DNA from: an uncultured Pelagibacteraceae bacterium | Lineage (GTDB): Bacteria > Pseudomonadota > Alphaproteobacteria > Pelagibacterales > Pelagibacteraceae | Reading direction: 5' to 3' | Assembly: GCA_902631535.1 (NCBI GenBank) | Contig: CACOYX010000007.1 | Span: 1 to 45,918, forward strand | DNA: 45,918 nt | Part shown: positions 3,499 through 26,519 of the stretch, one piece after another | Layout: the number at the start of each line of letters is the position of its first letter | Position numbering within the stretch: the stretch's first letter is position 1 | The notes under the pieces: generated by a model | Database searches by the model: none | What the model was told of the DNA's origin: nothing | The model's input: only the letters and a program-made list of their open reading frames with translations | Translations under genes and position numbers: made by a program

Positions 3499-3500
3499 AA

Positions 3501-5616: not shown

Positions 5617-5635
5617 AAAGATTTATACCATAATA

Positions 5636-5664
5636 TTGATATAGTTAGTTTAAGTCTATATAGG
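5636..5664 (+). promoter_or_regulatory. Candidate sigma-70-type promoter for tkt
   Basis: TTGATA at 5636-5641 and TATAGG at 5659-5664 are separated by 17 bases, in the 57-base gap between the divergent zapA-side gene and tkt. Each box matches four or five of six consensus positions. The predicted transcript start would fall only a few bases before the GTG start of tkt, implying a nearly leaderless message. In such AT-rich DNA chance matches are common, so this is tentative. Confidence 0.3.
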
Positions 5665-5673
5665 TATTTGGAA

Positions 5674-7656
5674 GTGACTGTAAAATTTAATCAATTATCC
5701 AACGCAATTAGATTTTTATCAATTGACGCTGTGCAAAAAGCAAATTCAGGTCATCCTGGCATGCCTATGGGTATGGCAGATGTTGCTACTGTTTTATTTA
5801 AATACCACCTGAGGTTTAATCCGAAAAATCCAAACTGGATTAATCGTGATAGATTTATTTTGTCTGCTGGACACGGTTCAATGTTACTTTACTCTCTTTT
5901 GTATCTTTGTGGTTACAAAAGTATTTCAATTGAGGATATAAAAAATTTTAGACAACTTAATTCTATTTGCGCTGGTCATCCGGAGTACAAAAAAGGTTCT
6001 GGAATTGAAACTACCACTGGACCTTTAGGACAAGGGTTAGGAAACGCTGTGGGTATGGCAATAGCAGAAGAAATATTCAGAAAAAAATTTAGTTCTTCTG
6101 TCATAAATAACAAAACCTATGTAATTGCGAGTGATGGAGACTTAATGGAGGGAATTAGTCATGAAGCAATGAGTCTAGCTGGCCATCTAAAATTAAAGAA
6201 TTTAATTGTTTTTTTTGACAATAATAAAATTTCAATTGACGGTTCAACATCGCTTAGTGTTTCAGATAATTACAAAAAAAGATTTGAATCTTACGGTTGG
6301 AGCTTCTTAGAGGTAAACGGTCACAATGAAAAACAAATTTCAAAAGCGATCACAAAAGCATCAAAATCAAAAAAACCTTCAGTAATATCTTGTAAAACTA
6401 TAATAGGATTTGGATCACCTAATAAATCTGGTAAAGCTTCCTCTCATGGGTCTCCTTTAGGAGATGAAGAAATAGCTTTAGTGAGAAAAAAACTAAAATG
6501 GAACAACCAGCCATTTGAAGTGCCTCAAGAAATACTAGATGAATGGAGAAATATAGGTAACAAGGGTGAGCAACTGGAAAATGAATGGCTTGAAACAGTC
6601 AATAAAAAAAATTCTAAAATTAAAAGTGAACTTAACGGGGCTAAAGAGAAATTGAATTTGAACGGTTTAGAAGATTTAATTCGTCAAGAAAAAGATAAAC
6701 ATTTTGAATCAAAGCCAAGTTTAGCTACACGACAATGCTCGATGGCTGCAATAGAAAAAATTTCTGCCTTTCTTCCTGAATTAATAGGTGGTTCTGCAGA
6801 TTTAAGTGGTTCTAATAATACAAAGACAAATAATTCTAAAATTATAAACTCTAAAAATTTTAATGGAAATTATATTCATTACGGAGTTAGAGAACATGGT
6901 ATGGCAGCAGTTATGAATGGTTTAGCGCTTTATGGAGGTATAATACCTTATGGTGGAACATTTTTAATATTTTCAGATTATTGTAAACCCTCAATAAGAC
7001 TCTCTGCTTTAATGGGTCTTAAGGTAATTTATGTTTTTTCACACGACTCGATTGGCCTTGGTGAAGATGGTCCTACTCACCAACCTATAGAACAACTTAC
7101 TGGGTTGAGAGCAATTCCAAATTTAAATGTCTTCAGGCCAGCAGATATTAATGAAACATTTGAATGTTGGGAAATAGCTTTAAAAAGTGAAAATACCCCA
7201 AGTGCTATTGCTTTATCGAGACAAAAAGTTCCTTACATCAATCCAAGCAATGCTAAAGAGAATAAATGTGAAAAAGGAGCCTATGTAGTTAAATTGACTT
7301 CGCATGAGAGTAATGTAACATTGGTTGCTTCAGGTACTGAGGTAGAGCTTGCTTTAAAAGTTCAAGAGAAACTTATAGAAAATAATATTCATTCTAAAGT
7401 CATTTCAATGCCTTGTATGGAGCTTTTTGATAAACAACCTGAGGATTACCGAAAAGATATTTTAGAAGAAAACTCATTGATCATCACATTGGAAGCTGGA
7501 AGTGTAACGTCTTGGCAAAAATATATTAAAAATAAAGGTGCCAATTTAGGTATAGATAAATTTGGTGAAAGTGCTCCTTATAAAGAAATTTACAAACATT
7601 TTAAATTATCAGAGGAAGATATAACAAATTTTATTCAAAAAAAATTGAGAGAGTAG
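5674..7656 (+). CDS. tkt: Transketolase
   Basis: About 660 residues from a GTG start at 5674, which begins [20 protein letters not shown], the usual transketolase start. The frame stays open upstream to an ATG at 5590, but that would add 28 unrelated residues and overlap the divergent gene. Motifs: SGHPGMPMG near the N-terminus, the thiamine diphosphate/Mg motif [37 protein letters not shown] with the catalytic Glu, and [14 protein letters not shown]. It moves two-carbon units in the non-oxidative pentose phosphate pathway. It is followed after 9 bases by pgk; the gap gene that often lies between is absent. Confidence 0.96.
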
Positions 7657-7665
7657 TATAAGCCG

Positions 7666-8856
7666 ATGGGTGAAATAAATTTCTTTCCTGATGATTTAGA
7701 AATCAAAGATCAAAAGATAATTCTTAGATTAGATTTAAATGTTCCAATAAAAGACAAAGTTATTAAAGATGATACAAGAATAACTTTATGTTTACCTTTT
7801 ATAAATAGACTAATTGAAAAAAAAGCAAAAATTATAATTATTAGTCATTTAGGTCGACCAAAAGGAATAAATGTCCCTGACCTGTCTTTAATACCTATCT
7901 ACAAATATCTCAAAGATGCGCTTAAAACTAATGTTTATTTTTTTAGAGGAACTTTTGATGGTGAAACTAAAGAAAAATTTTCTCACCTAAAAGGAGGTGA
8001 GGTAATATTAATTGAGAATATAAGATTTTTTAAAGAAGAAACCGAAGATGGCCAAGATTTTTCAAAAAAGCTAGCTGAACTTGGAGACATTTATATTAAT
8101 GATGCATTTTCATGCTCTCATAGGGAACAAGCTTCTGTGCATGGTATAACAAAATTTGTAAAAAAAAGTTATGCTGGTCCATTATTAAAAAAAGAAATAA
8201 CAGCAATAAATCTTGTTATAAAAAATAAAAAAGAACCAGTCACTTGCATTATCGGAGGATCAAAAATTTCTACAAAAATTAATGTTATTACTAATCTTTT
8301 AAAAAAAGTAAACAATATGGTAATAGTTGGAGCAATGGCTAATAATTTTTTTGTTTATAAAAACTTAAAGGTTGGAAAATCATTGGTTGAAAAAGATACA
8401 AAAGAAATAATTAAGACTATTTATAGCAAAGCTGAACAGAATAATTGTAAAATATTAATACCTGAAGATTGTATAGTCGGAGTTAGTTTTGAAGGTAAGG
8501 GAATTAATAAAAGTCTAGGTGATATACTTGATGATGAAATTATTTTGGACATAGGAGAAAACACAATAAAAAATATTTGTGAGGTAGTTGAACGATCTAA
8601 TACAGTCTTATGGAATGGACCGGCTGGATATTTTGAAAATGAAAACTTTGCGAAGGGAACTTTCTCTATCGCAGAAAATATATCAAAAAATACTATTGAA
8701 AAATCGTTAATTTCAGTGCTTGGAGGTGGTGATACTTTAGCAGCAATTAATAGAAATAAAAATAAACTTTCATTCTCGCACTTATCAACAGCAGGAGGTG
8801 CATTTTTAGAATACTTAGAAGGAAAAGACTTGCCTGGCATAAGTGTTTTAAAATAA
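7666..8856 (+). CDS. pgk: Phosphoglycerate kinase
   Basis: 396 residues, full length. Motifs include RLDLNVP (3-phosphoglycerate binding), SHLGRPKG, the DAFSCSHREQASVHGI hinge region, GGSKISTKINVI, WNGPAGYFE and the nucleotide loop GGGDTLAAI. The enzyme interconverts 1,3-bisphosphoglycerate and 3-phosphoglycerate with ATP formation. DAFSCSHREQAS replaces the more common DAFGTAHRAHAS, but the key Asp and His remain. It lies between tkt and the aldolase gene in one transcription unit, consistent with a glycolysis/gluconeogenesis and pentose-phosphate operon. Confidence 0.96.
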   Translation: MGEINFFPDDLEIKDQKIILRLDLNVPIKDKVIKDDTRITLCLPFINRLIEKKAKIIIISHLGRPKGINVPDLSLIPIYKYLKDALKTNVYFFRGTFDGETKEKFSHLKGGEVILIENIRFFKEETEDGQDFSKKLAELGDIYINDAFSCSHREQASVHGITKFVKKSYAGPLLKKEITAINLVIKNKKEPVTCIIGGSKISTKINVITNLLKKVNNMVIVGAMANNFFVYKNLKVGKSLVEKDTKEIIKTIYSKAEQNNCKILIPEDCIVGVSFEGKGINKSLGDILDDEIILDIGENTIKNICEVVERSNTVLWNGPAGYFENENFAKGTFSIAENISKNTIEKSLISVLGGGDTLAAINRNKNKLSFSHLSTAGGAFLEYLEGKDLPGISVLK

Positions 8857-8865
8857 ATAATCTTT

Positions 8866-9882
8866 ATGACTTTAAATGATATCGCAAAAAAAATGTGTAC
8901 AAAGGGAAAAGGTATCCTGGCAGCAGACGAGAGTACTGGCACTATAGCAAAAAGATTTAAAAGTATAAATGTAGAGAATTCAGAAAAAAATAGATTAAAT
9001 TTTAGACAAACTCTTTTTAACTCAAGTGCGATGAAGGATTTTATCGGAGGGGTAATTTTGTTTGATGAAACTATAAAACAAAAAACTACTTTAGGCCCAA
9101 CTGTTCCAGAATTGATTTCAAAACATGGATCGATACCGGGAATTAAAGTTGATAAAGGTGCTAAACCATTGGCAGGTTCTATCGATGAAACAGTTACAGA
9201 GGGTTTAGATGGTTTGCGAGAAAGATTGAAAGAATATTATAATTTAGGAGCAAGATTTACCAAATGGAGAGCTGTATACAAAATTTCAGACAAATTTCCT
9301 TCTACTCAATCAATTAAATCTAATGCTCATGCATTAGCAAGATACGCAGCTTTAGTTCAAGAAGCTAAAATGGTGCCAATAGTTGAACCTGAAGTTCTTA
9401 TGGATGGTTCGCATAATATTGATAAGTGCTATCAAGTTACAACCGATGTTCTAAACGAATGTTATAATGAGCTTGAGATACATAAAGTTGATCTAAAAGG
9501 GACTGTATTAAAACCAAATATGGTAATACCTGGATCTGAATGTAAAGATAAATCTAGCTCTGAAGAAATAGCAAAAAAAACACTGGATTGTTTAAAAAAA
9601 AATGTGCCAAGCGATGTTCCTGGAATTGCATTTTTATCGGGCGGCCAGTCAGAAATGGAGTCTAGTAAAAATTTAAATGAGATTAATAAAATTAATGATA
9701 GTAATTTTTTGATTACCTTTTCTTATGGAAGAGGGTTACAAGCTAGTGCCTTAAAGGAATTCGGTAAAGATCAAAAAAATACAGAAAATATTCAGAAAGC
9801 TTTTAATCACAGAGCCAAAATGAATGGCTTGTCCTCAAAAGGAGAATGGTCTGAAAACCTGGAAAAAGAATCAGCAGCTTAG
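8866..9882 (+). CDS. fba: Class I fructose-bisphosphate aldolase
   Basis: 338 residues of the class I (Schiff-base) aldolase family. Visible motifs: ILAADESTGTIAKRF near residue 20, the substrate region GGVILFDETI, KWRAVYKI, VEPEVLMDG, the catalytic lysine in VLKPNMVIPG, and SYGRGLQASALK near the end. It splits fructose 1,6-bisphosphate to two triose phosphates without a metal ion. It resembles the eukaryote-type class I enzymes more than the metal-dependent class II enzyme of many bacteria. The start codon is 9 bases after the pgk stop. The product ends normally before thiE. Confidence 0.95.
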   Translation: MTLNDIAKKMCTKGKGILAADESTGTIAKRFKSINVENSEKNRLNFRQTLFNSSAMKDFIGGVILFDETIKQKTTLGPTVPELISKHGSIPGIKVDKGAKPLAGSIDETVTEGLDGLRERLKEYYNLGARFTKWRAVYKISDKFPSTQSIKSNAHALARYAALVQEAKMVPIVEPEVLMDGSHNIDKCYQVTTDVLNECYNELEIHKVDLKGTVLKPNMVIPGSECKDKSSSEEIAKKTLDCLKKNVPSDVPGIAFLSGGQSEMESSKNLNEINKINDSNFLITFSYGRGLQASALKEFGKDQKNTENIQKAFNHRAKMNGLSSKGEWSENLEKESAA

Positions 9883-9885
9883 CCC

Positions 9886-10488
9886 TTGAAGAGACTTGTA
9901 TACTTAATTTCACCAAGTAAAGTTAAAGAAAACTTTTACTCAGACTTAAACGAAGTTTTAGCTTTTAAAAATGTAAAATTTTTTCAATTAAGATTAAAAA
10001 AAATTAAAAAAAAAGATCTTTTTCAAATAATAAACAAAGTAAAAAAAATAACAATTAAGCATAATGTCAAATTAATATTGAATGATAATTTTATTTTGGC
10101 TAATAAAACTAAAGTAGATGGTTGTCATATGGGACAACGTGATGGTTCATTTAAAATTGCAAGAAAAAAACTTAAAAGAAAGATTTTAGGCATTACATGT
10201 CATGGCTCTAAAACTCTTGCCGAAGAAGCATATAGAAATAATGCAGATTACATTGCTTTTGGCTCTTTTTTTAAATCAAAACTTAAACCGGGTGCAAAAA
10301 AAGCAAATATTAGCATTATAAGATGGGCTAAGAAAAAGATTAAAAAACCAATTGTAGTAATAGGTGGAATTAATAATTTGAATTATAAAAAATTAATAAA
10401 TGCAGGAGCAAAATATATTGCAATATCAAGTTTTATTTGGGATAACCCAAAATTAAAACCTGAATTAGCAATAAGAAAATTTAAATGA
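9886..10488 (+). CDS. thiE: Thiamine-phosphate synthase-like protein (TTG start)
   Basis: 200 residues from a TTG at 9886, three bases after the aldolase stop; no ATG offers a better start. ThiE motifs are visible: FFQLRLK (pyrophosphate/HMP binding), LILNDN, CHMGQRDG, GITCHGS, ADYIAFGSFFKSKLKPGAKK and the phosphate-binding VVIGGIN...INAGAKYIAISSF. ThiE joins HMP diphosphate and thiazole phosphate to make thiamine phosphate. With thiD at 22.5 kb it fits thiamine synthesis from imported precursors. The relaxed motifs (SKLKPGAKK in place of the usual T-TK) leave room for a TenI-like relative. It overlaps efp by 4 bases. Confidence 0.8.
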   Translation: MKRLVYLISPSKVKENFYSDLNEVLAFKNVKFFQLRLKKIKKKDLFQIINKVKKITIKHNVKLILNDNFILANKTKVDGCHMGQRDGSFKIARKKLKRKILGITCHGSKTLAEEAYRNNADYIAFGSFFKSKLKPGAKKANISIIRWAKKKIKKPIVVIGGINNLNYKKLINAGAKYIAISSFIWDNPKLKPELAIRKFK

Positions 10489-11048
10489 AAATAACAGCTA
10501 ACGAAATTAAACCTGGAATGATAATAGAGCACAAAAATGATTATTGGAATGTTTTAAAAACACAACATGTTAAGCCAGGAAAAGGTGGCGCTTTTAATCA
10601 AGTAGAATTAAAAAGTGTTGTTAAGGGCACAAAATTAAATGAAAGATTTAGGTCAAGTGAAACCGTGGAGAAAGCTGAAGTTGATGAAAAAAAGTTTAAT
10701 TTTTTATATCTAGATGGTGAAAGCTGTCATTTCATGGACAACGTTTCATTTGAGCAAGTTGAGATACCAAAATCTGTCACGGGAGAACAGTATAAACTTT
10801 TAAAAGAAAATTTAGAAGTTACAATTTCATTTATGGAAGATAAGCCAATTTCTGTAGAGTTACCAAATAATATTGAATGTGTAGTAGAGTCAACCGATGC
10901 TGCAATAAAAAATCAAACAGCCTCATCATCTTATAAGCCTGCTCTACTTGATTGTGGTGTAAAAATTAATGTTCCACCGTTTATTGAAAGTGGAGAAAAA
11001 ATTATCATCGATACTCGAACATTAGAATATGTGAAAAGAGTAAATTAA
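10485..11048 (+). CDS. efp: Translation elongation factor P
   Basis: 187 residues with the three beta-barrel domains of EF-P. The N-terminal KOW-like domain carries the loop HVKPGKGGAF, whose tip lysine is K33, equivalent to E. coli K34, the site of beta-lysylation by EpmA/EpmB. C-terminal EF-P motifs (VPPFIESGEKIIIDTRTLEYVKRV) are intact. EF-P rescues ribosomes stalled at proline runs. No epmA or epmB is in the window, so the modification state is unknown. ATGA overlap with thiE and a stop sharing a base with the suhB start (TAATG) show tight coupling. Confidence 0.97.
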   Translation: MKITANEIKPGMIIEHKNDYWNVLKTQHVKPGKGGAFNQVELKSVVKGTKLNERFRSSETVEKAEVDEKKFNFLYLDGESCHFMDNVSFEQVEIPKSVTGEQYKLLKENLEVTISFMEDKPISVELPNNIECVVESTDAAIKNQTASSSYKPALLDCGVKINVPPFIESGEKIIIDTRTLEYVKRVN

Positions 11049-11848
11049 TGAGATTAGAGTCTCCTCAAATTAATTTGATAACTAGAGCTTGTATGAAAGC
11101 CTCAAGATCTTTAATTAGGGATTTTGGAGAGATTGAAAATCTACAAGTTTTAGAAAAAGGTCCAGGTGACTTTGTTTCATCTGCTGATAAAAGGACTGAA
11201 AAAATATTAATTGATGAGCTTCAGAAAGCTCATCCAGATTATGGAATTATATCTGAGGAAGCAGGTATTATAAATAAATCAAATATTAATAATAGATGGA
11301 TAATTGATCCTATAGATGGAACCATGAACTTTTTAAATGGAGTTCCTCAATTTGCAATTTCTATTGGATATGAAGAGGACGGTGAAATAAAATGTGGAGC
11401 AATTTTTAATCCTATTATGAACGAAATGTTTTGTGCTGAAAAAGGTAATGGTGCCTATCTTAATAATTCAAGAATAAGAGTTTCAAACAAAAAAAAAATT
11501 AAAGATTCATTGCTTGTAACTGGTGGTCCTAAAGGAGTAAGCAAAATTAAAGATAAAATTTACTCAGAGTATATTAATATTTCAAACAATGTTTCAAATG
11601 TCAGAAAGTTTGGCAGTGCTGCTTTGGATATAGCTTATGTGGCTTGTGGAAGGTTTGATGGATACTGGCAACGAGAATTAAATTATTGGGATATAGCAGC
11701 AGGTATTATAATCTTAAAAGAGGCGGGAGGATTTGTTGATTTTTTTGAGGAAGACACTAACTTACCTTTGAAAAAGAATATATTAGCTACTAATTCCAAT
11801 ATTCATGAAGAATTAAGAGGTCTTTTAAATAAAAAAAATATTGAGTAA
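11048..11848 (+). CDS. suhB: Inositol-monophosphatase family protein (SuhB-like)
   Basis: 266 residues. Metal-binding motifs of the FIG/IMPase superfamily are complete: SEE with E70, DPIDGTMNF with D87 and D90, and WDIAAG near residue 217. The family hydrolyses small sugar phosphates such as inositol 1-phosphate; in bacteria SuhB also acts with the Nus transcription-antitermination complex. The start codon shares its A with the efp stop. Length and motifs are normal. Substrate cannot be told from sequence. Confidence 0.9.
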   Translation: MRLESPQINLITRACMKASRSLIRDFGEIENLQVLEKGPGDFVSSADKRTEKILIDELQKAHPDYGIISEEAGIINKSNINNRWIIDPIDGTMNFLNGVPQFAISIGYEEDGEIKCGAIFNPIMNEMFCAEKGNGAYLNNSRIRVSNKKKIKDSLLVTGGPKGVSKIKDKIYSEYINISNNVSNVRKFGSAALDIAYVACGRFDGYWQRELNYWDIAAGIIILKEAGGFVDFFEEDTNLPLKKNILATNSNIHEELRGLLNKKNIE

Positions 11849-11876
11849 AAACAATTAATATTATAAAACTCCGTTC

Positions 11877-12101
11877 ATGAAAAAGAACATACATCCAAAT
11901 TACCATAAAATTAAAGTTGTAATGACCGATGGTACTGAGTTTGAAACGCGATCAACTTGGGGTAAAGAAAACGATACTTTAAAATTAGACATTGATCCTA
12001 AATCTCATTACGCTTGGACAGGTGGTACTCAAAAAGTTTTAGATAAAGGCAGAGTAAGCAAATATAACAAAAAATTTAGCAACCTTAGATCAAAAAAATA
12101 G
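11877..12101 (+). CDS. rpmE: Ribosomal protein bL31
   Basis: 74 residues beginning [20 protein letters not shown], with the HYAWTGG motif typical of alphaproteobacterial bL31. It has no cysteine, so it is the zinc-free (C-minus) form and cannot hold the Zn ion of the CxxC type. bL31 bridges the two ribosomal subunits near the central protuberance. No clear Shine-Dalgarno precedes the ATG. The gene is followed 3 bases later by the DUF1013/TrcR gene, a typical alphaproteobacterial pair. Confidence 0.95.
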
Positions 12102-12104
12102 TTT

Positions 12105-12689
12105 ATGACTGAAACTCCATTTATGCCAAAAGCAACAGCTGTTTGGCTAGTTGAAAACACAACGCTAACTTTTAAACAAATTGCGGAATTTTGTAATTTG
12201 CATGAACTTGAAATTAAGGGAATTGCAGATGGAGATGTTGCGAAAGGAATTAAAGCCTATAATCCCATTCTTGCTGGCCAGTTGTCTAGGGAAGAAATTG
12301 AGACATGTTCTAAAAACCCTGAAAAAAAGTTAAGTTTATTAAAAAAAGTTGAGGAAGTTGAAATTAAAGAAAGAAAAAAACCTAAGTATACACCTTTGTC
12401 CAAAAGACAAGATAGACCCGATGCAATTTTATGGCTATGTAAAAATGCATCAGAATTAACAGATGGTCAAATTTCTAAATTAGTGGGGAGTACCAAAGGT
12501 ACAGTCTCTCTGATCAGAAAAAGAAGTTACTGGAATTTCTCTAATTTGAAACCTAGGGATCCAGTAATACTAGCTCTTTGCACACAACAGACTTTTCAAA
12601 AAGCTCTTGATAAGGCCAAGAGGCGAGTTGAAAGAGAGAAAAAAGCAAAGATAAGAGAGGAGAAAAAGGCTCAAGCTGCTTCTCTATAG
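12105..12689 (+). CDS. trcR: DUF1013 family, TrcR-type cell-cycle regulator
   Basis: 194 residues of the alphaproteobacterial DUF1013 family, annotated in some genomes as cell-cycle transcriptional regulator TrcR. Two helix-turn-helix-like segments are visible: TFKQIAEFCNLHELEIKGI (about 22-40) and LTDGQISKLVGSTKGTVSLI (about 117-136). The C-terminal tail is a Lys/Arg/Glu-rich helix. DNA binding is inferred from these helices. Position directly after rpmE is characteristic. What it regulates cannot be read from the sequence. Confidence 0.85.
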   Translation: MTETPFMPKATAVWLVENTTLTFKQIAEFCNLHELEIKGIADGDVAKGIKAYNPILAGQLSREEIETCSKNPEKKLSLLKKVEEVEIKERKKPKYTPLSKRQDRPDAILWLCKNASELTDGQISKLVGSTKGTVSLIRKRSYWNFSNLKPRDPVILALCTQQTFQKALDKAKRRVEREKKAKIREEKKAQAASL

Positions 12690-12730
12690 ACAAATAGTCT
12701 TTCTAATGGTAACTACCATCAAATTTAACT

Positions 12731-12743
12731 GGAGGTTTTTATT
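12731..12743 (+). promoter_or_regulatory. Strong Shine-Dalgarno and ATT start codon of rpsU
   Basis: GGAGG at 12731-12735 is five bases before ATT at 12741-12743. It is one of the clearest Shine-Dalgarno sequences in the window; most genes here have none or a weak one. The only other in-frame candidates before the conserved coding region are CTG (12729), which overlaps the GGAGG, and the stop TAA at 12726. A small inverted repeat (ATGGT 12706-12710, ACCAT 12715-12719) lies just upstream. ATT starts are known from infC and pcnB in E. coli, where initiation factor 3 discriminates against them. Confidence 0.7.
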
Positions 12744-12935
12744 AAAATAGACGTAAAAGATAATAATATAGAGCAAGCAATTAGAGTTCTGAAAAGAAAG
12801 CTTCAAAAAGAGGGTTTTTTCAAAGTTATGAAAATGAAAAGTACTTATGAAAAACCATCTGAAAAAAAAAAGAGAGTTCAAACAGAGAATCTTAAGAGAA
12901 TAAAAAAACTCCAAAAACTAAAAAATAGATATTAG
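12741..12935 (+). CDS. rpsU: Ribosomal protein bS21, apparent ATT start
   Basis: Reading from ATT at 12741 gives 64 residues, read as [20 protein letters not shown] and onward, through [20 protein letters not shown] to a stop at 12933-12935. This matches bS21 closely (VxDNNxEQALRxLKRKxQxEG and EKPSEKR). The ATT codon sits exactly where the initiator Met falls in homologues, and GGAGG is ideally spaced. No ATG occurs before residue 30. bS21 is a small basic 30S protein near the anti-Shine-Dalgarno end of 16S rRNA. An ATT start with a strong ribosome site suggests regulated initiation. A sequencing error (ATT for ATG) is the alternative. Confidence 0.9.
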
Positions 12936-12961
12936 ACTTATTTAAAATGAGAGGATCAACA

Positions 12962-13165
12962 ATGCCATCGGGTAAAGTAAAATGGTTTAACGCCAAAAAA
13001 GGTTATGGATTTATTACTGATGATGAAACGCAAAAGGATATTTTTCTTCATGTGTCAGCATTAGAGGAATCTAAGTTAAGAGTATTGAAGGAAGAGCAGA
13101 TAATTGTATACGATATAAAAGAAGAGAAAGATAAACTTCAGGCTATTAATATTAAAAAAAAGTAA
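12962..13165 (+). CDS. cspA: Cold-shock domain protein
   Basis: 67 residues from the ATG at 12962, starting MPSGKVKWFNAKKGYGFITD. An earlier in-frame ATG at 12947 exists, but GAGGA at 12951-12955 is correctly spaced for 12962 and homologues start there. The nucleic-acid binding motifs RNP1 (KGYGFI) and RNP2 (DIFLHVSAL) are intact. Such proteins bind single-stranded RNA/DNA and act as RNA chaperones. The gene lies between rpsU and tRNA-fMet. Which csp paralogue this is cannot be decided. Confidence 0.92.
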   Translation: MPSGKVKWFNAKKGYGFITDDETQKDIFLHVSALEESKLRVLKEEQIIVYDIKEEKDKLQAINIKKK

Positions 13166-13170
13166 TTTAT

Positions 13171-13247
<77 letters not shown>

Positions 13248-13249
13248 AA

Positions 13250-15511
13250 ATGACAGACACAATCAGAAATATCACTATTATAGCTCACGTCGATCATGGA
13301 AAAACTACTTTGATTGATAATCTTATGAGACAAAGCGGAACTTTTAGGGAAAACGAAAATGTCGAAGAAAGAGTAATGGACTCTGGAGAGCTAGAAAAAG
13401 AGAGAGGAATAACAATTCTTGCAAAACCTACTTCGATTAATTGGAAAAATTCAAGAATAAATATTATTGATACGCCAGGTCACAGAGATTTTGCAGCTGA
13501 AGTTGAGAGAGTTTTACATATGGCCGATGGAGCTTTATTACTAATTGATTCAGCCGAAGGAGTAATGCCACAAACGAAGTTTGTATTATCTAAAGCTTTA
13601 AAACAAGGTTTGAAACCAATTGTAGTAATTAATAAGCTTGATAAACAGGATCAAAGAGCAAATGAAGTATTAGATGAAACTTTTGACTTATTTGTAAGTC
13701 TTGATGCAAATGAGGAGCAATTAGACTTTCCGGTATTATATGCAAGTGGAAGATCTGGCTGGGCATCTAAAGAGATAAATGGTCCAAGAGAAAATTTGCA
13801 ACCTTTATTAAATTTAATAATTGACCATGTTAAGCCGTCGACTTTTGATAAAACGAAACCATTCGCTATGCTTTCTACACTCCTTTATGCTGACAGTTTT
13901 TTAGGAAGAAGCTTAGTAGGAAGAATTGCTCAAGGAACTGCAAAAGCAAATCAGCAAATAAAGGCTATTAATCTAAACGGAGAGAAAGTAGATGAAGGAA
14001 GGCTTACAAAAATTTTTAGATATGAGGGTACAAAAAAAATTCCTATTGATGAAGGTGAAGCTGGAGATATTGTAATTATTGCTGGATTAGAAAAAGCTAA
14101 TGTTGCTGATACAATTTGTGATTTAGAAATAAACGATCCAATTAATGCTACGCCTATTGATCCCCCTACCATGTCAATAACAATTACCGTAAATAGTTCT
14201 CCTTTGGCAGGGACGGAAGGAAAAAAATTAACAAGTACTCAAATAAGGGAACGATTAATTTTGGAAGCTGAAAACAATGTTGGGATCAACTTTGAAGAAA
14301 ATGAAAATAAAGATGCTTTCGTTATAAGTGGTAGAGGTGAGTTGATGTTAGAGATTCTTTTAACACAGATGCGAAGAGAGGGTTTCGAAATGACCGTAAG
14401 CCCGCCAAAAGTTTTAATTAGAAAAAATGATAAAGGTAGTAAAATGGAGCCAATCGAAGAAATAACAATGGATTTAGATGAAGAGTTTTCATCAAGAATT
14501 ATAGACTCCATGAATAGAAGAAAAGGTAAATTAAAAGTTGAGTTTAGACTTTGGGATTTAGCAGCTGCAAAAGAAATGACAGCATTGGCTTTTACAACTA
14601 CACCATCAAACTGGAGAAGGGTAGCACATATAATCTCTGATAAAATTTATGAAAGATTGACTGGAGAAGAGGGTTATTTTGATACAAGAATAATTTATGT
14701 AGCAGAAAGCGGTCCAAAAAACCAAAGAGTAAAAAAACTTGCGATTATGGATCAAGATGGGTCTAATACAAAATATCTAACTTTAGGTAACGAGTTAGTT
14801 TTAACTCCAAGATTTAATCCAACAAATCAAATGGTCACATACATGTCATATTTTAGAAACATGCCCAGAGTTTACTTGCTTGATATTGAGACAGGCACCC
14901 AAGAAGTAGTTGGAAATTTTCCTGGAATGACCTTTGCACCTAGATTTTCACCTGACGGTAAAAAAATTGTAATGAGTTTTGCTAAAGATGGTAATTCAGA
15001 TATTTATACAATGGATCTTGACTCAAGAGTAGTTGAAAGAATAACTGACCATTCATCAATTGATACATCACCATCATTTTCACCAGACGGAAAATTCATT
15101 GCATTCAATTCAGATAGAAGTGGTTTGCAACAAATTTATGTTATGCGTAGTGATGGAAGCGGAGTTAAAAGAGTTACATTTGGCAATGGTATTTATGGAA
15201 CACCTGTGTGGTCACCTAGAGGAGATTTGATCGCATTTACAAAAATGCGTAAAGGTAAATTTTATATTGGTGTAATGAGAGTTGATGGCACCGGTGAAAG
15301 ATTGTTGACAGAAAATTTTTATCAAGAAGCACCTTCATGGTCACCAAATGGAAGAGTTTTGGTTTTTTATAGAGAAACTAAATCTGGATCACAGGGGGAG
15401 GGTTTTTCAGCAAAATTATGGTCTATTGATATTACAGGCTATAATGAAAGAAGGCTTAAAACTGAAACGGATGCCTCAGACCCATCTTGGTCCTCTCTTT
15501 TATCAAAATAA
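13250..15511 (+). CDS. Chimeric frame: TypA (BipA) front joined to TolB back
   Basis: 753 residues. Residues 1 to about 428 are TypA/BipA, a ribosome-binding GTPase: G1 AHVDHGKTT (12-20), RGIT (52-55), DTPGH (74-78), NKLD (128-131), then domain II and the EF-G-like domain III ([15 protein letters not shown]). TypA ends abruptly at RRKGKL, before its C-terminal domains of about 180 residues. From KVEFRLWD (429 on) the frame is TolB: the last part of its N-domain, then a six-bladed propeller with repeated FSPDG/WSPRG/WSPNG motifs to the normal TolB end. There is no signal peptide in front of the TolB part, so it could not reach the periplasm. The missing TolB front is on the opposite strand at 1-308. 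The likely cause is an inversion or misassembly. Confidence 0.92.
14528..14537 (+). other. TypA/TolB junction (inversion or assembly breakpoint)
   Basis: Family membership switches between codons 427 (TypA-like RRKGK) and 430 (TolB-like VEFRLWD), around AAATTAAAAG. The exact base cannot be fixed, because an A-rich stretch coding for Lys-Leu-Lys could belong to either gene. Such a short shared word is what an assembler or a microhomology-driven event would join. Reversing bases 1-14,530 brings the tolB front (1-308) to this point in the right orientation, lacking only about 50-60 bases. Confidence 0.8.
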
Positions 15512-15588
15512 TGGAATATTTTGAGTAAAATACACTTGAATAACTTTGAATAATTTGAAATAAACCACTTACTAACCCAGGGGAAAAA

Positions 15589-16065
15589 ATGATGTTTAAT
15601 AAGAATTTAAAAAATATATTACTAGTAATATTTGCTACTTTAATTTTAAGTGCATGTTCTACTGCTAAAAAATCTGGAAACGTGGACGGGGACGTTTATA
15701 CTGGAAAAGAAACAGTCAAATTTTTAGCTTCAGGTGTTCCGGACAGAGTATTTTTTGCTACAAATAAATCTTCTTTAACTACAGCTTCAAGAGCTACTTT
15801 AAGAAAACAAGCAACTTATTTGAGAAAAAATAAAAATCTTACTGTGACAATCGAAGGTCATGCAGATGAAAGAGGAACTAGAGAATATAACTTAGCTTTA
15901 GGTGAAAGAAGAGCTAATGCTGCTAAAGATTATTTGATGACTTATGGAATTTCTGGAAAAAGAATTTCTGTAATAAGCTATGGTAAAGAGAAGCCAGTGA
16001 ATTCAGCTTCAACTCCTTTAGCTTGGTCTCAAAATAGAAGATCTGTAACAGTTAAAGTAAATTAA
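15589..16065 (+). CDS. pal: Pal, peptidoglycan-associated lipoprotein
   Basis: 158 residues. A lipoprotein signal with lipobox LSAC places the lipidated Cys at about residue 22. The OmpA-like peptidoglycan-binding domain follows (about 50-155), with the GHADERGTREYNLALGERRA motif that contacts diaminopimelate. Pal anchors the outer membrane to the cell wall and is the partner of TolB. AGGGG before the double ATG (15589 and 15592) is a strong ribosome site. A rho-independent terminator follows directly. The gene keeps its normal position after the tolB C-terminal part. Confidence 0.96.
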   Translation: MMFNKNLKNILLVIFATLILSACSTAKKSGNVDGDVYTGKETVKFLASGVPDRVFFATNKSSLTTASRATLRKQATYLRKNKNLTVTIEGHADERGTREYNLALGERRANAAKDYLMTYGISGKRISVISYGKEKPVNSASTPLAWSQNRRSVTVKVN

Positions 16066-16085
16066 TTAATATTTTAACAAATACT

Positions 16086-16124
16086 AAGACCCCTTAATAT
16101 AAAATATTAAGGGGTCTTTTTTTT
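16086..16124 (+). terminator. Rho-independent terminator after pal
   Basis: A perfect 15-base-pair inverted repeat (16086-16100 with 16104-16118, stem AAGACCCCTTAATAT) with a 3-base loop is followed by a T run through 16124. It is the only strong intrinsic terminator found in the window. It separates tolB-pal from cpoB/tilS, so cpoB either has its own promoter or depends on read-through. Confidence 0.93.
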
Positions 16125-16150
16125 GCCATTTTATCTATTTAAAAAGAATC

Positions 16151-17113
16151 ATGTTTGCATTTTCAAAATTAAAAAAAATTTTAATTTTTTTATTTTTTTC
16201 ACTTTTTAGTACTTCGCTTATAGCTGAGGAAGAAGAAATATATTTAAAAGCTATATCTGATCAAATTCAGGTTATCACAAAGGATCTAAAAACATTGGAG
16301 AAAGCAGTGTACCAAAAATCTGATGTTGTTTCTGTAAAATCATCAAGTTCGATAAGCACTGATGGTTTAAATGAAGATATAATGACAAAACATCTTTTAA
16401 AATTAAATGAAATTGAAGATCAATTTAGAGAACTTACGAATAAATTTGAGGAAGTAAATTTTAAACTTGATAAATTATCAAGCAGAGTTTCAAAAATTCA
16501 ATCAGACACACAACTAAGATTTTCTGATTTAGAGAATGGAACAAATGTAGCTTCAACAACAAAGCAAACAGAACTTCCTGGATCTGCTAAGCCTCAAGAT
16601 TTTGGTGCTGCTCCAGGTTATCAAACTTCGAACCTACCAAAGGAACAATCAATAAATTCAGTAGAGACAGCTAAAACAGTAATTACCGAAGAACCGGAGG
16701 AAAGAGAGTCCTTGCTTCCTGACAAACCTGCAAAGGAGCAATATGAGTTTGCAGTTAGTTTTATGAAAATAGGAGATTACGAAACTGCTGAATTTGCTTT
16801 AAAAGAATTCATCGAAAAAAACAAAGATCACGACTTAGCTGGAAATGCACAATATTGGTATGGTGAAACTTTTAGAATTCGACAATTATATTCTGATGCC
16901 GCTACAGCTTATCTTGATGGATATCAAAATTACCCAAAAAGTAAAAAAGCACCAGACAATCTTTTAAAATTAGGAATTACTATGGTTCAACTTGGAGAAA
17001 AAGATCAGGGATGCAAAATGATTTCAGGACTGAAAAAAGAATACCCAAAAGCTAGCAAGTCTGTGTTACAAAAAGCTCAGTATGAGCAAAAAAAATTCAA
17101 GTGTAAATCTTAA
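16151..17113 (+). CDS. cpoB: CpoB/YbgF, Tol-Pal-associated periplasmic protein
   Basis: 320 residues. N-terminal signal peptide (about 1-25, LFSTSLIAEEE), then a coiled-coil region (about 30-125) used for trimerisation in homologues, a flexible Ser/Pro-rich linker, and a C-terminal tetratricopeptide domain (about 195-315; YEFAVSFMKIGDYETAEFALKEF and following repeats). CpoB couples Tol-Pal outer-membrane constriction with septal peptidoglycan synthesis. It follows pal after the terminator and overlaps tilS by 32 bases. Confidence 0.9.
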   Translation: MFAFSKLKKILIFLFFSLFSTSLIAEEEEIYLKAISDQIQVITKDLKTLEKAVYQKSDVVSVKSSSSISTDGLNEDIMTKHLLKLNEIEDQFRELTNKFEEVNFKLDKLSSRVSKIQSDTQLRFSDLENGTNVASTTKQTELPGSAKPQDFGAAPGYQTSNLPKEQSINSVETAKTVITEEPEERESLLPDKPAKEQYEFAVSFMKIGDYETAEFALKEFIEKNKDHDLAGNAQYWYGETFRIRQLYSDAATAYLDGYQNYPKSKKAPDNLLKLGITMVQLGEKDQGCKMISGLKKEYPKASKSVLQKAQYEQKKFKCKS

Positions 17114-18101
17114 AAACGGTTTTAAAGAATCAAAAGTTCTTTCAGAAATATTCTTAAATTTTAAAAGAAAATTAGACTCTCTTAATAAAAAAAAATATTT
17201 AGTAGCAGTTTCAGGCGGTCCTGATAGTCTAGCTTTAGTTGCATTAGCTAAAGCTTACTCGTTTTATAAAAATTCTAAAATTTATTATGTCTTAGTTGAT
17301 CACAATATTAGAAAAAATTCTGGAAAAGAGTCAATAAAAGTAAAAAAATTACTAAAAAAAAATAAGATTAATTTAAAAATTTTATTAAATAAAAAAAAAA
17401 TAGTAAAAAACGTTCAAGCAGAGGCTCGTAAGTCTAGATACGGAATTTTATCGAATTATTGTAAAAAGCATAAAATTAAGGTTTTAATTACTGCCCACAA
17501 TTTAGAAGATCAAGTGGAGACTTTTTTTATAAGACTTTCTAGAGGCAGCGGATTAAAAGGTTTATCCTCGATGAAGACCATTACTAAACTTAATAGTCAG
17601 GTAAAATTATATAGACCACTATTAGATATAAAAAAAACTTTTCTAATTAAAATATCAAAGAGCGTTTTTGGCACATATATAAAAGATCCTTCAAATAAAA
17701 ATCAAAAGTTTTTGAGGACTAAAATTAGAAAGTTGAAAAAACATTTAGAAAGCAGTGGAATTAAATATGATAAAATTTTTAAATCGATAAGCTATTTATC
17801 GATCAGTAAAAATACATTAGATGGATATTTTAACAAAATTTTTAAGGAATTAATAAAAAAGAAAAATAAAGAAATTTTGATTAATTTTAAAAAGTATTCA
17901 GAATTAGGTAATGATACAAAAATAGCATTAATAAATGAGTGCATAAAACAAATTAAAAAAAACTATTACGATTTAAGATCAAAAAAAGTCGAAAACTTGA
18001 TTAAGAATTTAAGTAAAAAAAAATCAAAAAAATGGACACTCGGAGGCTGTATTTTTATTAAAAAGGACGGAAATATATGTTTAAAGCCTGAAAAATCTTA
18101 A
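17082..18101 (+). CDS. tilS: tRNA(Ile)-lysidine synthase
   Basis: 339 residues. The N-type ATP pyrophosphatase PP-loop SGGPDSLAL lies at about 44-52, followed by the ADH-type DHNIR and AHNLEDQVETFFIRLSRGSGLKGLSSM motifs of TilS. The enzyme adds lysine to the wobble C of tRNA-Ile(CAT) so that it reads AUA, a frequent codon in such an AT-rich genome. The start overlaps the cpoB end by 32 bases; codons before the PP-loop are not conserved, so a later start is possible. The gene is very Lys-rich and includes an A10 run at 17391-17400. Confidence 0.93.
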   Translation: MSKKNSSVNLKNGFKESKVLSEIFLNFKRKLDSLNKKKYLVAVSGGPDSLALVALAKAYSFYKNSKIYYVLVDHNIRKNSGKESIKVKKLLKKNKINLKILLNKKKIVKNVQAEARKSRYGILSNYCKKHKIKVLITAHNLEDQVETFFIRLSRGSGLKGLSSMKTITKLNSQVKLYRPLLDIKKTFLIKISKSVFGTYIKDPSNKNQKFLRTKIRKLKKHLESSGIKYDKIFKSISYLSISKNTLDGYFNKIFKELIKKKNKEILINFKKYSELGNDTKIALINECIKQIKKNYYDLRSKKVENLIKNLSKKKSKKWTLGGCIFIKKDGNICLKPEKS

Positions 18102-18134
18102 AATATTAGCCCAAATTTGATCTTTTTGTCTTAT

Positions 18135-18163
18135 TTACAACTTATTAAACATTACAATATACT
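18135..18163 (+). promoter_or_regulatory. Candidate sigma-70-type promoter for ftsH
   Basis: TTACAA at 18135-18140 and TATACT at 18158-18163 with an exact 17-base spacer, inside the 95-base gap between tilS and ftsH. The -10 box matches five of six consensus bases. A start near 18170 would give a leader of about 27 bases. No terminator for tilS is seen in the gap. Confidence 0.5.
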
Positions 18164-18196
18164 TGTTAAAAATTAATTAATGACTATTTAAAGATT

Positions 18197-20092
18197 ATGA
18201 ATATTAAAAATTTAATTATGTGGGTAATAATAGTCCTTCTTTCAGTAGGATTATTCAATATGTTCCAAGACCCTAACAAAATAAGTGCAGAAAGAAATTC
18301 TTTACCATTCTCTAATTTCTTAAATGAAGTTGATGCAGGTAGAGTTGTAGAAGTTCAAATTCAGGGTAACAATATTTCAGGAGTTCTAGCCAACGGAAAA
18401 AAGTTTAAAACTTATTCTCCAAACTACCCAGAGTTAGTTGATAAACTTTCATCGAAAGGTGTAAGTATATTAGCCTCACCTCAAGAGGATAAAATGCCAT
18501 CATTACTGGGTATTTTACTATCATGGTTCCCAATGCTTTTACTTATTGGTGTATGGATATTTTTTATGCGTCAAATGCAAGGAGGTAAGGGTGGAGCAAT
18601 GGGTTTTGGCAGATCAAAAGCAAAATTATTAAATGAAGCTCAAGGTAAAGTTACCTTTAACGATGTTGCCGGAGTCGAAGAGGCTAAAGAGGAAGTTGAA
18701 GAAATAGTTGAATTTTTGAAAGACCCAAAGAAATTTAGTCGACTCGGAGGAAAAATTCCTAAAGGCGCTCTTTTGATTGGTCCACCGGGCACTGGTAAAA
18801 CATTATTAGCTAAAGCTATTGCTGGTGAAGCTAACGTTCCTTTTTTTTCTATTTCAGGTTCTGATTTTGTTGAGATGTTTGTTGGTGTAGGCGCATCCAG
18901 AGTTAGAGATATGTTTGAACAAGGAAAAAAACATTCTCCATGTATTATTTTTATAGACGAGATTGATGCAGTCGGCAGAAGTAGAGGAGCAGGTTTAGGC
19001 GGCGGAAATGATGAGAGAGAACAAACACTCAACCAATTACTTGTTGAGATGGATGGTTTCGACACTAATGAGGGAATTATTTTAATTGCTGCAACAAACA
19101 GACCAGATGTATTAGATCCAGCTTTATTGAGACCGGGAAGATTTGATAGACAAGTAGTAGTTGGAAATCCAGATATAATTGGAAGAGAGGCAATTTTAAA
19201 GGTTCATGTAAAAAAAATCAGCACTGGTCCTGATGTTAAACTTAGAACTATTGCGAGAGGTACGCCAGGATTTTCTGGAGCTGATTTAGCAAACTTAATT
19301 AATGAGTCTGCGCTATTAGCAGCCAGGAAAAATAAAAGAGTAGTTACAATGTCTGATATTGAAGAGGCGAAGGATAAAGTAATGATGGGCGCTGAGAGAA
19401 GATCAATGGTTATGTCAGAAGATGAAAAAAAACTTACAGCTTATCATGAAGGAGGTCACGCAATAGTTGCTTTAAATGAAAAAGCATCAGACCCAATACA
19501 TAAAGCTACAATAATTCCTAGGGGGCGAGCATTAGGTATGGTTATGAGACTTCCAGAGAGAGACCAACTTTCAGTAACAAGAGAAAAAATGTACTCAGAT
19601 ATAGCTGTAGCAATGGGTGGAAGAATAGCTGAAGAAATAATTTTTGGTCACGATAAAGTAACTTCAGGAGCTTCATCCGATATTGATATGGCTACCAAAA
19701 TGGCTAAAAACATGGTTACAAAATATGGTATGAGCAAAGAACTTGGTCCCTTAGCTTATGGTGAAAATGAAGAAGAGGTATTTTTAGGAAGATCTGTAAC
19801 GAAACAACAAAATATGTCTGAAGAAACAGCCAAAAAAGTTGATGCTGAGGTTAAAAAAATAGTGGACGCTGGATATGAAAGAGCAAGAAAAGTTTTAACA
19901 GATAAAATTGAAGATTTACATAAATTAGCTAAAGCACTTCTAATTTATGAGACTTTATCAGGCGATGAAATAAGGGACTTGATAATTAAAAATATAAAGC
20001 CAACTAGGTCTTTCAAAGAAGAAGACGAAGATGATGGCAAAACATCATCAGCTCTAGGTTCGTTAGGATTAAAACCAAAGCCAGCAATTTAA
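18197..20092 (+). CDS. ftsH: FtsH, membrane AAA+ zinc protease
   Basis: 631 residues. Two N-terminal membrane helices (about 5-22 and 100-124) flank a periplasmic domain. The AAA module has Walker A GPPGTGKT at 195-202, Walker [13 protein letters not shown] and the second region of homology [18 protein letters not shown]. The protease domain carries the zinc site H417EGGH421 (HEAGH in most homologues; the HExxH core is intact) and a distant Asp in [11 protein letters not shown]. FtsH degrades membrane proteins and regulators such as sigma-32, whose gene rpoH is also in the window. It stands after tilS, the standard neighbour. Confidence 0.97.
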
Positions 20093-20096
20093 ATAA

Positions 20097-21155
20097 ATGA
20101 TAAAATATTACACTCGTGCGTGTAATTTTTTTTACGGCTCTATTTCAAAAAATTTAGTAAAAAACAAAATTACTTTGCCTTTATGTGGTGATAGCTCGAT
20201 ATCATTCAATCAAATAGAAATTTTTATTAAAAATAAAAAAAAAATAAGTTCTAAAATTTTATATATAAAAAATATAAAAAAACTCCCTAATACAATAAAA
20301 AAAAAAGTATCTAGAGATATAAAAAAAATAACTGAAAAAAGATTATTTATTGGAAAAAAAAAACATATGCTTATGGGGATACTAAACTTAACACCAGATA
20401 GCTTTTCTGATGGAGGAAAATTTAATTCATTTAAAAAAGCTAACAAAAGAATCAAAGATATGATTGACTCCGGAGTAAATATTATTGACGTTGGAGGAGA
20501 GTCAACAAGACCTGGCTCAAAAATAGTATCTCAAAAAAATGAACTTCAAAGAGTAAAGCAAGTAATAAAAAAATTTAAAAAAAAATACCCCAAAATTTTG
20601 TTGTCAATTGATACCAGAAAGTCACAAGTTATGAATTTTTCTATAAAACATAATACAGATATCATAAATGATGTTTCATGCTTCAAATTTGATTCAAAGT
20701 CTTTTTCAATTATTAAAAAAAAAAAATTATGGAAAATTATTCATCATATGCAAGGAACCCCACAAACAATGCAAATCAATCCGAAATATAAACATGTTTT
20801 ATTAGATATATATGATTTTTTTGAGAGAGAGATTGAAAAATTTAAAAAGACAAAATATCCCAAAAAAATAATTCTTGATCCTGGAATAGGATTTGGAAAA
20901 AACCTGAAACATAATTTGATGATTTTAAATAAAATTTCTTTATTTCATTCACTTGGTTTTCCTATATTAATAGGCACTTCTAGAAAAAAATTTATTAATC
21001 AAATTTCGGGAAAATATGATACGAAAGAGAGAATTGGAGGAACTTTATCATCAATAATTTTTTCTTTCTCACAAGGAATAAAAATTTTTAGAGTGCACAA
21101 TGTTGAAGAAGTTAAGCAAGGTCTTTTAACATTCGAAACTTTACTAAATAAATGA
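20097..21155 (+). CDS. folP: Dihydropteroate synthase with N-terminal extension
   Basis: 352 residues, longer than the roughly 280 of E. coli FolP. The catalytic barrel starts near residue 90 with MGILNLTPDSFSDGG, followed by IDVGGESTRPGS, NDVSCF, HHMQGTPQTMQ, DPGIGFGK and GTSRKKFI. It joins p-aminobenzoate to the pterin in folate synthesis. The first 85 or so residues (YYTRACNFFYG...LPLCGDSSISF) resemble the extension of some alphaproteobacterial FolP proteins; their role is not known to me. An A12 run at 20715-20726 and two A10 runs lie in the gene. It starts 4 bases after ftsH and overlaps glmM by 4. Confidence 0.93.
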   Translation: MIKYYTRACNFFYGSISKNLVKNKITLPLCGDSSISFNQIEIFIKNKKKISSKILYIKNIKKLPNTIKKKVSRDIKKITEKRLFIGKKKHMLMGILNLTPDSFSDGGKFNSFKKANKRIKDMIDSGVNIIDVGGESTRPGSKIVSQKNELQRVKQVIKKFKKKYPKILLSIDTRKSQVMNFSIKHNTDIINDVSCFKFDSKSFSIIKKKKLWKIIHHMQGTPQTMQINPKYKHVLLDIYDFFEREIEKFKKTKYPKKIILDPGIGFGKNLKHNLMILNKISLFHSLGFPILIGTSRKKFINQISGKYDTKERIGGTLSSIIFSFSQGIKIFRVHNVEEVKQGLLTFETLLNK

Positions 21156-22483
21156 AAAAAAAATACTTTGGAACAGATGGGATAAGAGGAACCGTTAATA
21201 TCGGAAATATTAATGGAGAAAAATTTTTTAAATTTGGTTTAGCAGCAGGCACTTATTTTAAAAATTTGAGGAAAAAAAAACAAGTGACAATTATTGCAAA
21301 AGACACTCGATTATCTGGATACACTCTTGAACCCGCTTTGGTCTCAGGCTTAGCATCCGCTGGAATGCATATTTTTACATTGGGCCCATTACCTACTAAT
21401 GGGCTAGCCATGCTTACTAAAAAGATGAAAGCAAATCTTGGAATAATGATTACTGCATCTCATAATCCTTTCCAAGATAATGGTCTTAAATTATTTGGGC
21501 CAGACGGGATGAAATTATCCGATAAGATTGAAAAAAAAATTGAAAACCTGATTGATACTAAAACCACTAATCATTTATCTGAACCAAAATTATTAGGTAG
21601 AGTAAAAAGATTAGAAGACGGAAATGATAAATATATCAAAATTTTGAAAAATAATTTTCCAAGTGATTTCAGCCTGAAGGGTATGCGTATAGTCTTAGAT
21701 TGCGCTAATGGAGCTGGATACAAATCTGCCCCAAAAATACTTTCTGAATTAGGCGCAAAGGTTTTTTCAATTGGAGTTAAACCTAATGGTTTAAATATTA
21801 ATTATAATTGTGGATCAACTTTTCCAGAAATTTTAAGGAAATATGTAAAAAAATTTAAGGCAGATCTTGGCATTTCTCTCGATGGGGATGCAGACAGAGT
21901 AATTATGTGTGATGAGAAAGCAAAAATAATTGATGGCGATCAAATCATTGCAATGATTGCTAAAAGATGGAAAAGAAAAAAAATTTTAAAAGGCGGGGTA
22001 ATTGGAACGCTCATGTCTAATTATGGCTTAGAAAATTTTTTTGCTGCTGAAAAAATTAATTTTAAAAGATCAAAAGTAGGTGACAGATATGTCAAAGAAA
22101 TGATGAGGAAGCATAATTATAATCTTGGTGGGGAGCAGTCAGGTCATATTATTTTAGGTAAATTTGCTACTACAGGAGACGGTTTATTAGTTGCTCTTGA
22201 AGTGTTGTTCGCGCTGAGAAAAGGTAAATTAGCCAGTGAAACATTTAAGGTTTATAAATCAGTTCCTCAAAAATTATTAAATATAAAAGTAAAAGACAAA
22301 AATATCATAAATTCTTCTAAGTGTAAAAAAGCTATTAAAACTGCAAATAATCTTATAAACAACAAAGGAAGATTGTTAGTACGACCTTCAGGAACAGAAC
22401 CTAAAGTGAGAATAATGTGCGAGTCGTTTGATGTTAAATTAATAAATAAGTGTCTAACCATTGTTAAAAAAACAATTTGCTAA
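21152..22483 (+). CDS. glmM: Phosphoglucosamine mutase
   Basis: 443 residues. Begins KKKYFGTDGIRG. The phosphoserine loop TASHNPFQDNG places the catalytic Ser at 103; the metal loop DGDADR is near 242-247; the sugar-binding GGEQSGH and the phosphate-binding RPSGTEPKVRIM are intact. GlmM converts glucosamine 6-phosphate to glucosamine 1-phosphate for UDP-GlcNAc, the precursor of peptidoglycan and lipopolysaccharide. GGEQSGH together with TASHNP separates it from phosphomannomutases. The ftsH-folP-glmM order is conserved in proteobacteria. Confidence 0.96.
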   Translation: MKKKYFGTDGIRGTVNIGNINGEKFFKFGLAAGTYFKNLRKKKQVTIIAKDTRLSGYTLEPALVSGLASAGMHIFTLGPLPTNGLAMLTKKMKANLGIMITASHNPFQDNGLKLFGPDGMKLSDKIEKKIENLIDTKTTNHLSEPKLLGRVKRLEDGNDKYIKILKNNFPSDFSLKGMRIVLDCANGAGYKSAPKILSELGAKVFSIGVKPNGLNINYNCGSTFPEILRKYVKKFKADLGISLDGDADRVIMCDEKAKIIDGDQIIAMIAKRWKRKKILKGGVIGTLMSNYGLENFFAAEKINFKRSKVGDRYVKEMMRKHNYNLGGEQSGHIILGKFATTGDGLLVALEVLFALRKGKLASETFKVYKSVPQKLLNIKVKDKNIINSSKCKKAIKTANNLINNKGRLLVRPSGTEPKVRIMCESFDVKLINKCLTIVKKTIC

Positions 22484-22486
22484 AAT

Positions 22487-25484: not shown

Positions 25485-25514
25485 ATAATGTAATTATATA
25501 TAAAATTTAATTTT

Positions 25515-26495: not shown

Positions 26496-26519
26496 AAATT
26501 AATTTAGATTATTCATATT

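What the first reader, a model, noticed from the sequence alone, without database searches (positions are those of the whole stretch)
13250..15511. In-frame TypA-TolB chimera at a probable inversion breakpoint
Residues 1-428 are TypA without its C-terminal domains; residues 429-753 are TolB without its signal peptide and first part. The missing TolB front (102 codons) is at bases 1-308 on the opposite strand, and by comparison with E. coli TolB only about 15-20 residues lie between the two pieces. Turning bases 1 to about 14,530 around restores the classical co-oriented order yebC-ruvC-tolQRAB-pal-cpoB-tilS-ftsH. If real, the strain would have lost intact TypA and TolB at once, unless the reciprocal pieces are functional; misassembly is more likely. 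Anyone annotating this frame as a fusion protein would be misled.
Basis: partly seen in the sequence, partly recalled or inferred. Interest (0 to 1): 0.85.

Follow-up and report, generated by a model that had tools for sequence, protein, structure and literature searches.

The report
TypA-TolB fusion is an assembly artefact
The apparent fusion of a translation GTPase and an envelope protein in this marine SAR11-type bacterium most likely comes from a DNA copying error during whole-genome amplification that the assembler kept, so it is ordinary and should not be annotated as a new protein.

Summary
Frame 13250-15511 is TypA residues 1-428 joined in frame to the back of TolB; the TolB front lies at bases 1-308 on the other strand. 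Eight related genomes place both break points to within a few bases: window 1-14534 is inverted relative to them, 43 bp of tolB are missing in 8 of 8, and the join lies on GGTAAATTAA (14525-14534), shared in full or part by both genes. Only the own genome, 1 of 169 searched in the genus, has a frame across the join. The 11 family genomes listed with one contig have separate full-length typA and tolB.

The contig's own first base is the strongest clue. The smallest gap between neighbouring contigs of this assembly is 145 bp on two references, as expected for 100 bp trimmed per end and k-mer 55. By that rule the untrimmed contig ran 57 bp (55 + 2) into the tolB side of its own junction, where a graph edge ends if reads of normal tolB were also present. 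The join is most likely an inverted amplification chimera kept by the assembler, not a genomic inversion or functional fusion. Raw reads were not available.

The parts
13250..14534 (+). typA front (residues 1-428); the C-terminal part is missing
   Evidence: TIGR01394 positions 1-423 of 594; blastn to 8 relatives ends at 14529-14534
14525..14534 (+). junction: 10-base stretch GGTAAATTAA shared in full or in part by typA and tolB, in the same codon phase
   Evidence: typA of 4 of 8 relatives has all ten bases; of 38 named tolB loci 1 has all ten and 21 have the last seven, AAATTAA; the strain's own two parent sequences are unknown
14525..15511 (+). tolB back part, from about TolB profile position 99 to the end
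   Evidence: TIGR02800; collinear with relatives onward
1..308 (-). tolB front (102 codons), cut by the contig end; 43 bases of tolB lie between it and position 14525 in relatives
1..14534 (.). segment typA-front to tolB-front, inverted relative to the five relatives that span it (G017, G018, G002, G010, and G014, which has about 5.5 kb extra before typA)
14535..45918 (.). rest of the contig, collinear with G002 and G010 apart from a variable gene block at about 26.6-29.06 kb

Best explanation
The frame is an artefact. During whole-genome amplification of one SAR11-type cell, a displaced 3' end in tolB (or typA) annealed through about 7-10 complementary bases to the opposite strand 14.5 kb away and was extended, giving an inverted chimeric molecule. 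The assembler met a graph in which both ends of the 14.5-kb edge (typA-front to tolB-front) led to the same tolB-back vertex, and it output the chimeric path. The true tolB path was left as a contig end, which was then trimmed by 100 bp. Shown here: the inversion, the 43-bp gap, the shared bases in relatives, the absence of the join from the other genomes searched, and the contig-gap arithmetic. Inferred: that the source was a single amplified genome, and that reads of both joins existed.
For: One strand switch, at 14525-14534, in the relatives whose fetched stretches cover both sides. 43 bp missing in 8 of 8 relatives. Junction-spanning frame in 1 of 169 genus genomes, the own one, and in 0 of 29 others of the family searched at 97% completeness or more, 11 of them listed with one contig. 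typA and tolB are separate in the relatives. 77 of 80 named loci are AG-/AH- _NODE records; that this series is GORG-Tropics SAGs is recalled. The workflow named for GORG-Tropics is phi29-type amplification, SPAdes 3.0.0 --sc, 100 bp trimmed from each contig end, contigs over 2000 bp kept (PMC5519541, passages); the smallest contig here is 2292 bp. Smallest facing gap between G000 contigs is 145 bp on both references = 200 - 55. The C7 start lies 43 bp from the internal junction, and 100 - 43 = 57 = 55 + 2. MDA chimeras: 85% inverted, 2-21 complementary bases in 76.8% (PMC1855051). Benchmark rate 1.5 misassemblies per 100 kb (PMC11247762).
Against: The joined sites are 14.5 kb apart, while MDA inversions were mostly under 10 kb apart (337 of 406); among inverted chimeras over 10 kb apart only 34.8% showed complementary bases. 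The source of G000 is named by no tool, and 23 of the 80 titles say 'MAG', so 'SAG' is inferred. Only one contig gap equals 145 bp; k = 55 as the SPAdes default is recalled. The strain's own tolB codon at 14525-27 is unknown: exactly '55 + 2' needs an xAT codon (4 of 38 tolB loci), whereas GGA, the commonest (13 of 38), would miss by one base and GGT by two. The benchmark SAGs with the smallest genome had the fewest misassemblies, and no other strand switch was seen in the parts of G000 compared.
Confidence: 0.94

Rival explanations
1. A true inversion of about 14.5 kb in this cell, with break points inside typA and tolB and a small deletion, leaving a fused TypA-TolB frame in vivo.
For: Geometry is that of an inversion; the frame is open; the reciprocal join would lie left of base 1, where the contig ends.
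Against: The contig end falls 43 bp from the partner break point. With 58 ends in about 1.1 Mb, an end at the four positions predicted by the trim rule has a chance of about 2 in 10,000 (arithmetic). No other genome searched shows the join. No tolB-front/typA-back join and no typA-back was found in the assembly, though it is only 82% complete. It would break two conserved genes at once.
Confidence: 0.02
2. The genome is a metagenome bin in which some cells carry a true inversion and others the normal order, so the assembler met both joins.
For: It would give the same graph and the same contig end; 23 of 80 record titles among relatives say 'MAG'.
Against: No other genome of 169 in the genus shows the join; the AG-/AH- names are, by recall, single cells; the 145-bp contig gap fits the SCGC single-cell workflow.
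Confidence: 0.01
3. Pure software misjoin of two repeats, with no chimeric molecule.
For: The join is at shared bases.
Against: The shared stretch is at most 10 bases, far below k = 55 (inference); none of the 25 longest inverted repeat pairs shown, of 155 found, lies at the break points.
Confidence: 0.02
4. A functional fusion gene with a second intact tolB or typA elsewhere in the genome.
For: The frame is open for 753 codons.
Against: No second tolB or typA in the 893-kb assembly, which is 82% complete; the other five matches lie in the GTPase half at 30-45% identity, as other GTPases would. tolQRA-like genes and the tolB front stand at the contig end.
Confidence: 0.01

Closest known systems
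Inverted chimeras of multiple displacement amplification (Lasken and Stockwell 2007, PMC1855051)
   Same: Second segment inverted; join at a short complementary stretch (2-21 nt there, up to 10 here); partner from the same genome neighbourhood
   Different: Partners 14.5 kb apart, beyond the usual under 10 kb; seen as an assembled contig, not as a read
TypA/BipA translational GTPase (TIGR01394)
   Same: Residues 1-428 are an ordinary TypA front, up to 97% identical to relatives
   Different: C-terminal part absent; whole-protein score 595.5 is below the cut-off 757.3
TolB of the Tol-Pal system (TIGR02800)
   Same: The back part is an ordinary TolB, up to 96% identical to relatives
   Different: Signal peptide and front are missing from the frame, yet the score 391.2 still passes the cut-off 343.15

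Membership tests
MDA inverted chimera | Two segments of one genome joined in inverted orientation | tested here: met
MDA inverted chimera | Join at short complementary bases (2-21 nt in most) | tested here: met
   GGTAAATTAA in typA of 4 of 8 relatives; AAATTAA in 21 of 38 tolB loci; the strain's own parent sequences are unknown
MDA inverted chimera | Segments usually under 10 kb apart (a tendency, not a requirement) | tested here: not met
   about 14.5 kb
MDA inverted chimera | Absent from other genomes and from the same cell's unamplified DNA | tested here: inconclusive
   no junction-spanning match in 168 other genus genomes, many incomplete; unamplified DNA not available
MDA inverted chimera | Source DNA was phi29-amplified | tested here: inconclusive
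   inferred from named relatives and the 145-bp contig gap; own record not named
TypA (TIGR01394) | Full-length match above the curated cut-off | tested here: not met
   595.5 against 757.3 bits
TolB (TIGR02800) | Whole-protein score above the curated cut-off | tested here: met
   391.2 against 343.15 bits, although profile positions 1-98 are missing
True genomic inversion | Reciprocal join (tolB-front to typA-back) present | tested here: inconclusive
   no such join and no typA-back found in the 82%-complete assembly (the same typA-back query hits 4 of 4 relatives)

The most novel reading that the evidence does not exclude
The sampled cell (or part of its population) really carried a 14.5-kb inversion between typA and tolB and made a TypA-TolB fusion protein lacking the TolB signal peptide.
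Probability: 0.03. Interest if true: 0.45.

Novelty: not a real feature. Interest (0 to 1): 0.1.

Why it matters
It matters only as a caution. The fused frame passes the curated TolB cut-off, so a pipeline can name it TolB, and gene-fusion surveys could take it as a link between translation and the Tol-Pal envelope system. The case also suggests a cheap check, untested beyond this one contig: in assemblies made by this workflow, a contig end about 42-45 bp (100 minus 55 minus 0-3) from the mate of one of its own internal break points would mark an inverted chimera.

Tried and rejected
A second intact typA or tolB in the own genome: not found. The typA back end in the own genome: not found with protein (the same query hits 4 of 4 control relatives) or DNA (contig C23 ends inside a neighbouring gene that I read from its translation as pntB-like). 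The 43-bp tolB middle elsewhere in the own genome: only the two halves of C7 match well; six further matches are 15-23 bases at E 0.13-0.86. Other strand switches: none in 80 named loci (40 gave one match; 35 of the other 40 merely span two pieces of my reference; 5 show a gap or an insertion between pieces) and none in the parts of G000 C1, C4, C23 and the rest of C7 that align to G002:C1 (of the C2 stretch only one 0.6-kb piece, and of the C3, C5 and C6 stretches nothing, aligned at the length cut of 400). Long inverted repeats as the cause: none among the 25 pairs shown of 155. A paper giving the SPAdes default k-mers: the search listed two papers, not read. A paper tying the AG- names to GORG-Tropics: none found, so that link is recalled. 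A short tolB frame in G083 stands at its contig end: the contig is 13375 bases long. Of 58 contig ends, 34 mapped to neither reference and were left out of the gap count; 'C23e-C23s' is one contig and not a gap. An earlier count said that all 58 ends mapped; that is wrong, 24 did.

Full report
What is there. The frame 13250-15511 is open for 753 codons. Its first 428 residues are TypA (TIGR01394 positions 1-423 of 594, 595.5 bits, below the 757.3 cut-off); residues 423-748 are TolB (TIGR02800 positions 99-418, 391.2 bits, above the 343.15 cut-off). The minus-strand frame 3-308, cut by the contig start, is the TolB front. The window is the whole of contig C7 (45918 bases) of a genome of 893363 bases in 29 contigs, 82% complete.

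Comparison with relatives. In one search (31 genomes, own included), 29 have a match at E 1e-40 or better, of which 10 besides the own genome's fused frame show... in detail: 11 genomes show both genes and 17 show tolB only. Outside the own genome they are separate frames in every match listed (typA 609-637, tolB 442-456 aa of open frame). In G017, G018, G002, G010 and G014 both lie on one contig, on opposite strands. Window 1-14534 aligns in one piece to G017, G002 and G010 (to 14533 in G010) and from base 6 in G018; in G014 it aligns in two pieces, with about 5.5 kb extra between them just before typA. In each of these the segment is turned relative to 14525 onward. The rest of the window stays collinear with G002 and G010 to its end, and with G017 and G018 as far as their contigs reach, apart from a variable block near 26.6-29.06 kb. 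One search kept 80 of 137 loci; by my reading of that list 14 contigs carry both genes, all 14 on opposite strands, and no locus covers the join.

The break points. In 8 of 8 relatives 43 bases separate the end of the window's tolB front (base 1, reversed) from the base matching 14525. The typA alignments run to 14529-14534 and the tolB alignments start at 14525-14528. GGTAAATTAA is complete in typA of 4 of 8 relatives; in 38 named tolB loci, 1 has all ten bases and 21 have the last seven. Both genes read it in the same phase, which is why the frame stays open.

How rare. A 73-residue query across the join covers the join in 1 of 169 genus genomes, the own one; the 34 other matches at E 1e-22 or better cover only the TolB part, starting at query residue 28 or later (many of these genomes are incomplete, and weaker matches were not listed). 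In the family at 97% completeness or more (30 genomes, own included), the 29 others have the two genes apart (22) or only one of them (7); all 11 listed with one contig have both at full length (contig numbers there are rounded).

The missing back of TypA. It is not found in the own assembly, while the same protein query finds it in 4 of 4 relatives. Contig C23 ends inside the neighbouring gene, which I read as pntB-like. The unassembled stretch is about 1.6 kb by G017 and G010 and about 3.3 kb by G002. An incomplete assembly explains its absence.

Why the contig ends where it does. I searched all 58 contig ends of the own genome against two reference contigs, G002:C1 and G010:C1; 24 mapped to at least one. 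The smallest gap between facing contigs is 145 bp (C16 and C17), the same on both references; others are 191, 313, 459-462 and more. The workflow paper cited for GORG-Tropics uses phi29-type amplification, SPAdes 3.0.0 in single-cell mode, trims 100 bp from every contig end and keeps contigs over 2000 bp (PMC5519541, passages seen). Two trims minus a k-mer overlap of 55 give 145. The value 55 as the largest default k is recalled; the 145-bp gap agrees with it. By the same rule the untrimmed C7 ran 100 bases further: 43 bases of tolB plus 57 bases already present in C7 from 14525 on. That is k = 55 plus 2, where a graph edge ends if the normal tolB path and the chimeric path both lead into tolB-back. 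The 2 depends on the strain's own tolB codon, which is unknown; 0 to 3 is possible, so the match is to within two bases. By chance an end would fall on those four positions about 2 times in 10,000.

Mechanism. In a single-cell amplification of E. coli, 406 of 475 chimeras were inverted, and 3' ends had primed at complementary stretches of 2-21 bases in 76.8% of cases (PMC1855051, passages and the Results section). Here the join is inverted with up to 10 shared bases. The distance of 14.5 kb is long for that class (337 of 406 inverted ones were under 10 kb apart, and beyond 10 kb only 34.8% had complementary bases), but not excluded; most amplicons of the workflow exceed 7 kb. Benchmarks of the workflow gave on average 1.5 misassemblies per 100 kb (PMC11247762, section 5), fewest in the benchmark with the smallest genome. 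One in this genome is thus unremarkable; the parts of G000 that I could compare showed no other.

What is not shown. No tool names the own genome or its method. The single-cell origin rests on its named relatives (77 of 80 loci are AG-/AH- _NODE records, 23 of the 80 with 'MAG' in their titles), on a recalled link of these names to GORG-Tropics, and on the contig-gap arithmetic. If it were instead a bin of a mixed population, a real inversion in some cells could give the same graph; I rate that low. Raw reads were not available, so the presence of normal tolB in the reads is an inference.

Verdict. The frame should not be annotated as a fusion protein.

Noticed in passing
26601-29059: Three minus-strand genes between a pseudouridine-synthase-like gene and an ABC transporter differ among relatives: the middle one lies in an alignment gap in G002, G010 and G017, and the last also in G017. 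Gene names are my reading of the translations.
   Followed up: no
relatives (G019, G022, G023, G025-G030): 9 of 12 genomes of a sister family, G019 listed as 100% complete, show tolB but no typA match at E 1e-40 or better, while three others have typA at 1e-187 to 1e-191; typA may be patchy in this order.
   Followed up: no
13250-15511: The chimeric frame passes the NCBIfam TolB equivalog cut-off despite lacking the TolB front, so automatic annotation could name it TolB.
   Followed up: yes
G000:C16 and C17 ends: Facing contig ends are 145 bp apart on two references, a fingerprint of k = 55 plus 100-bp end trimming.
   Followed up: yes
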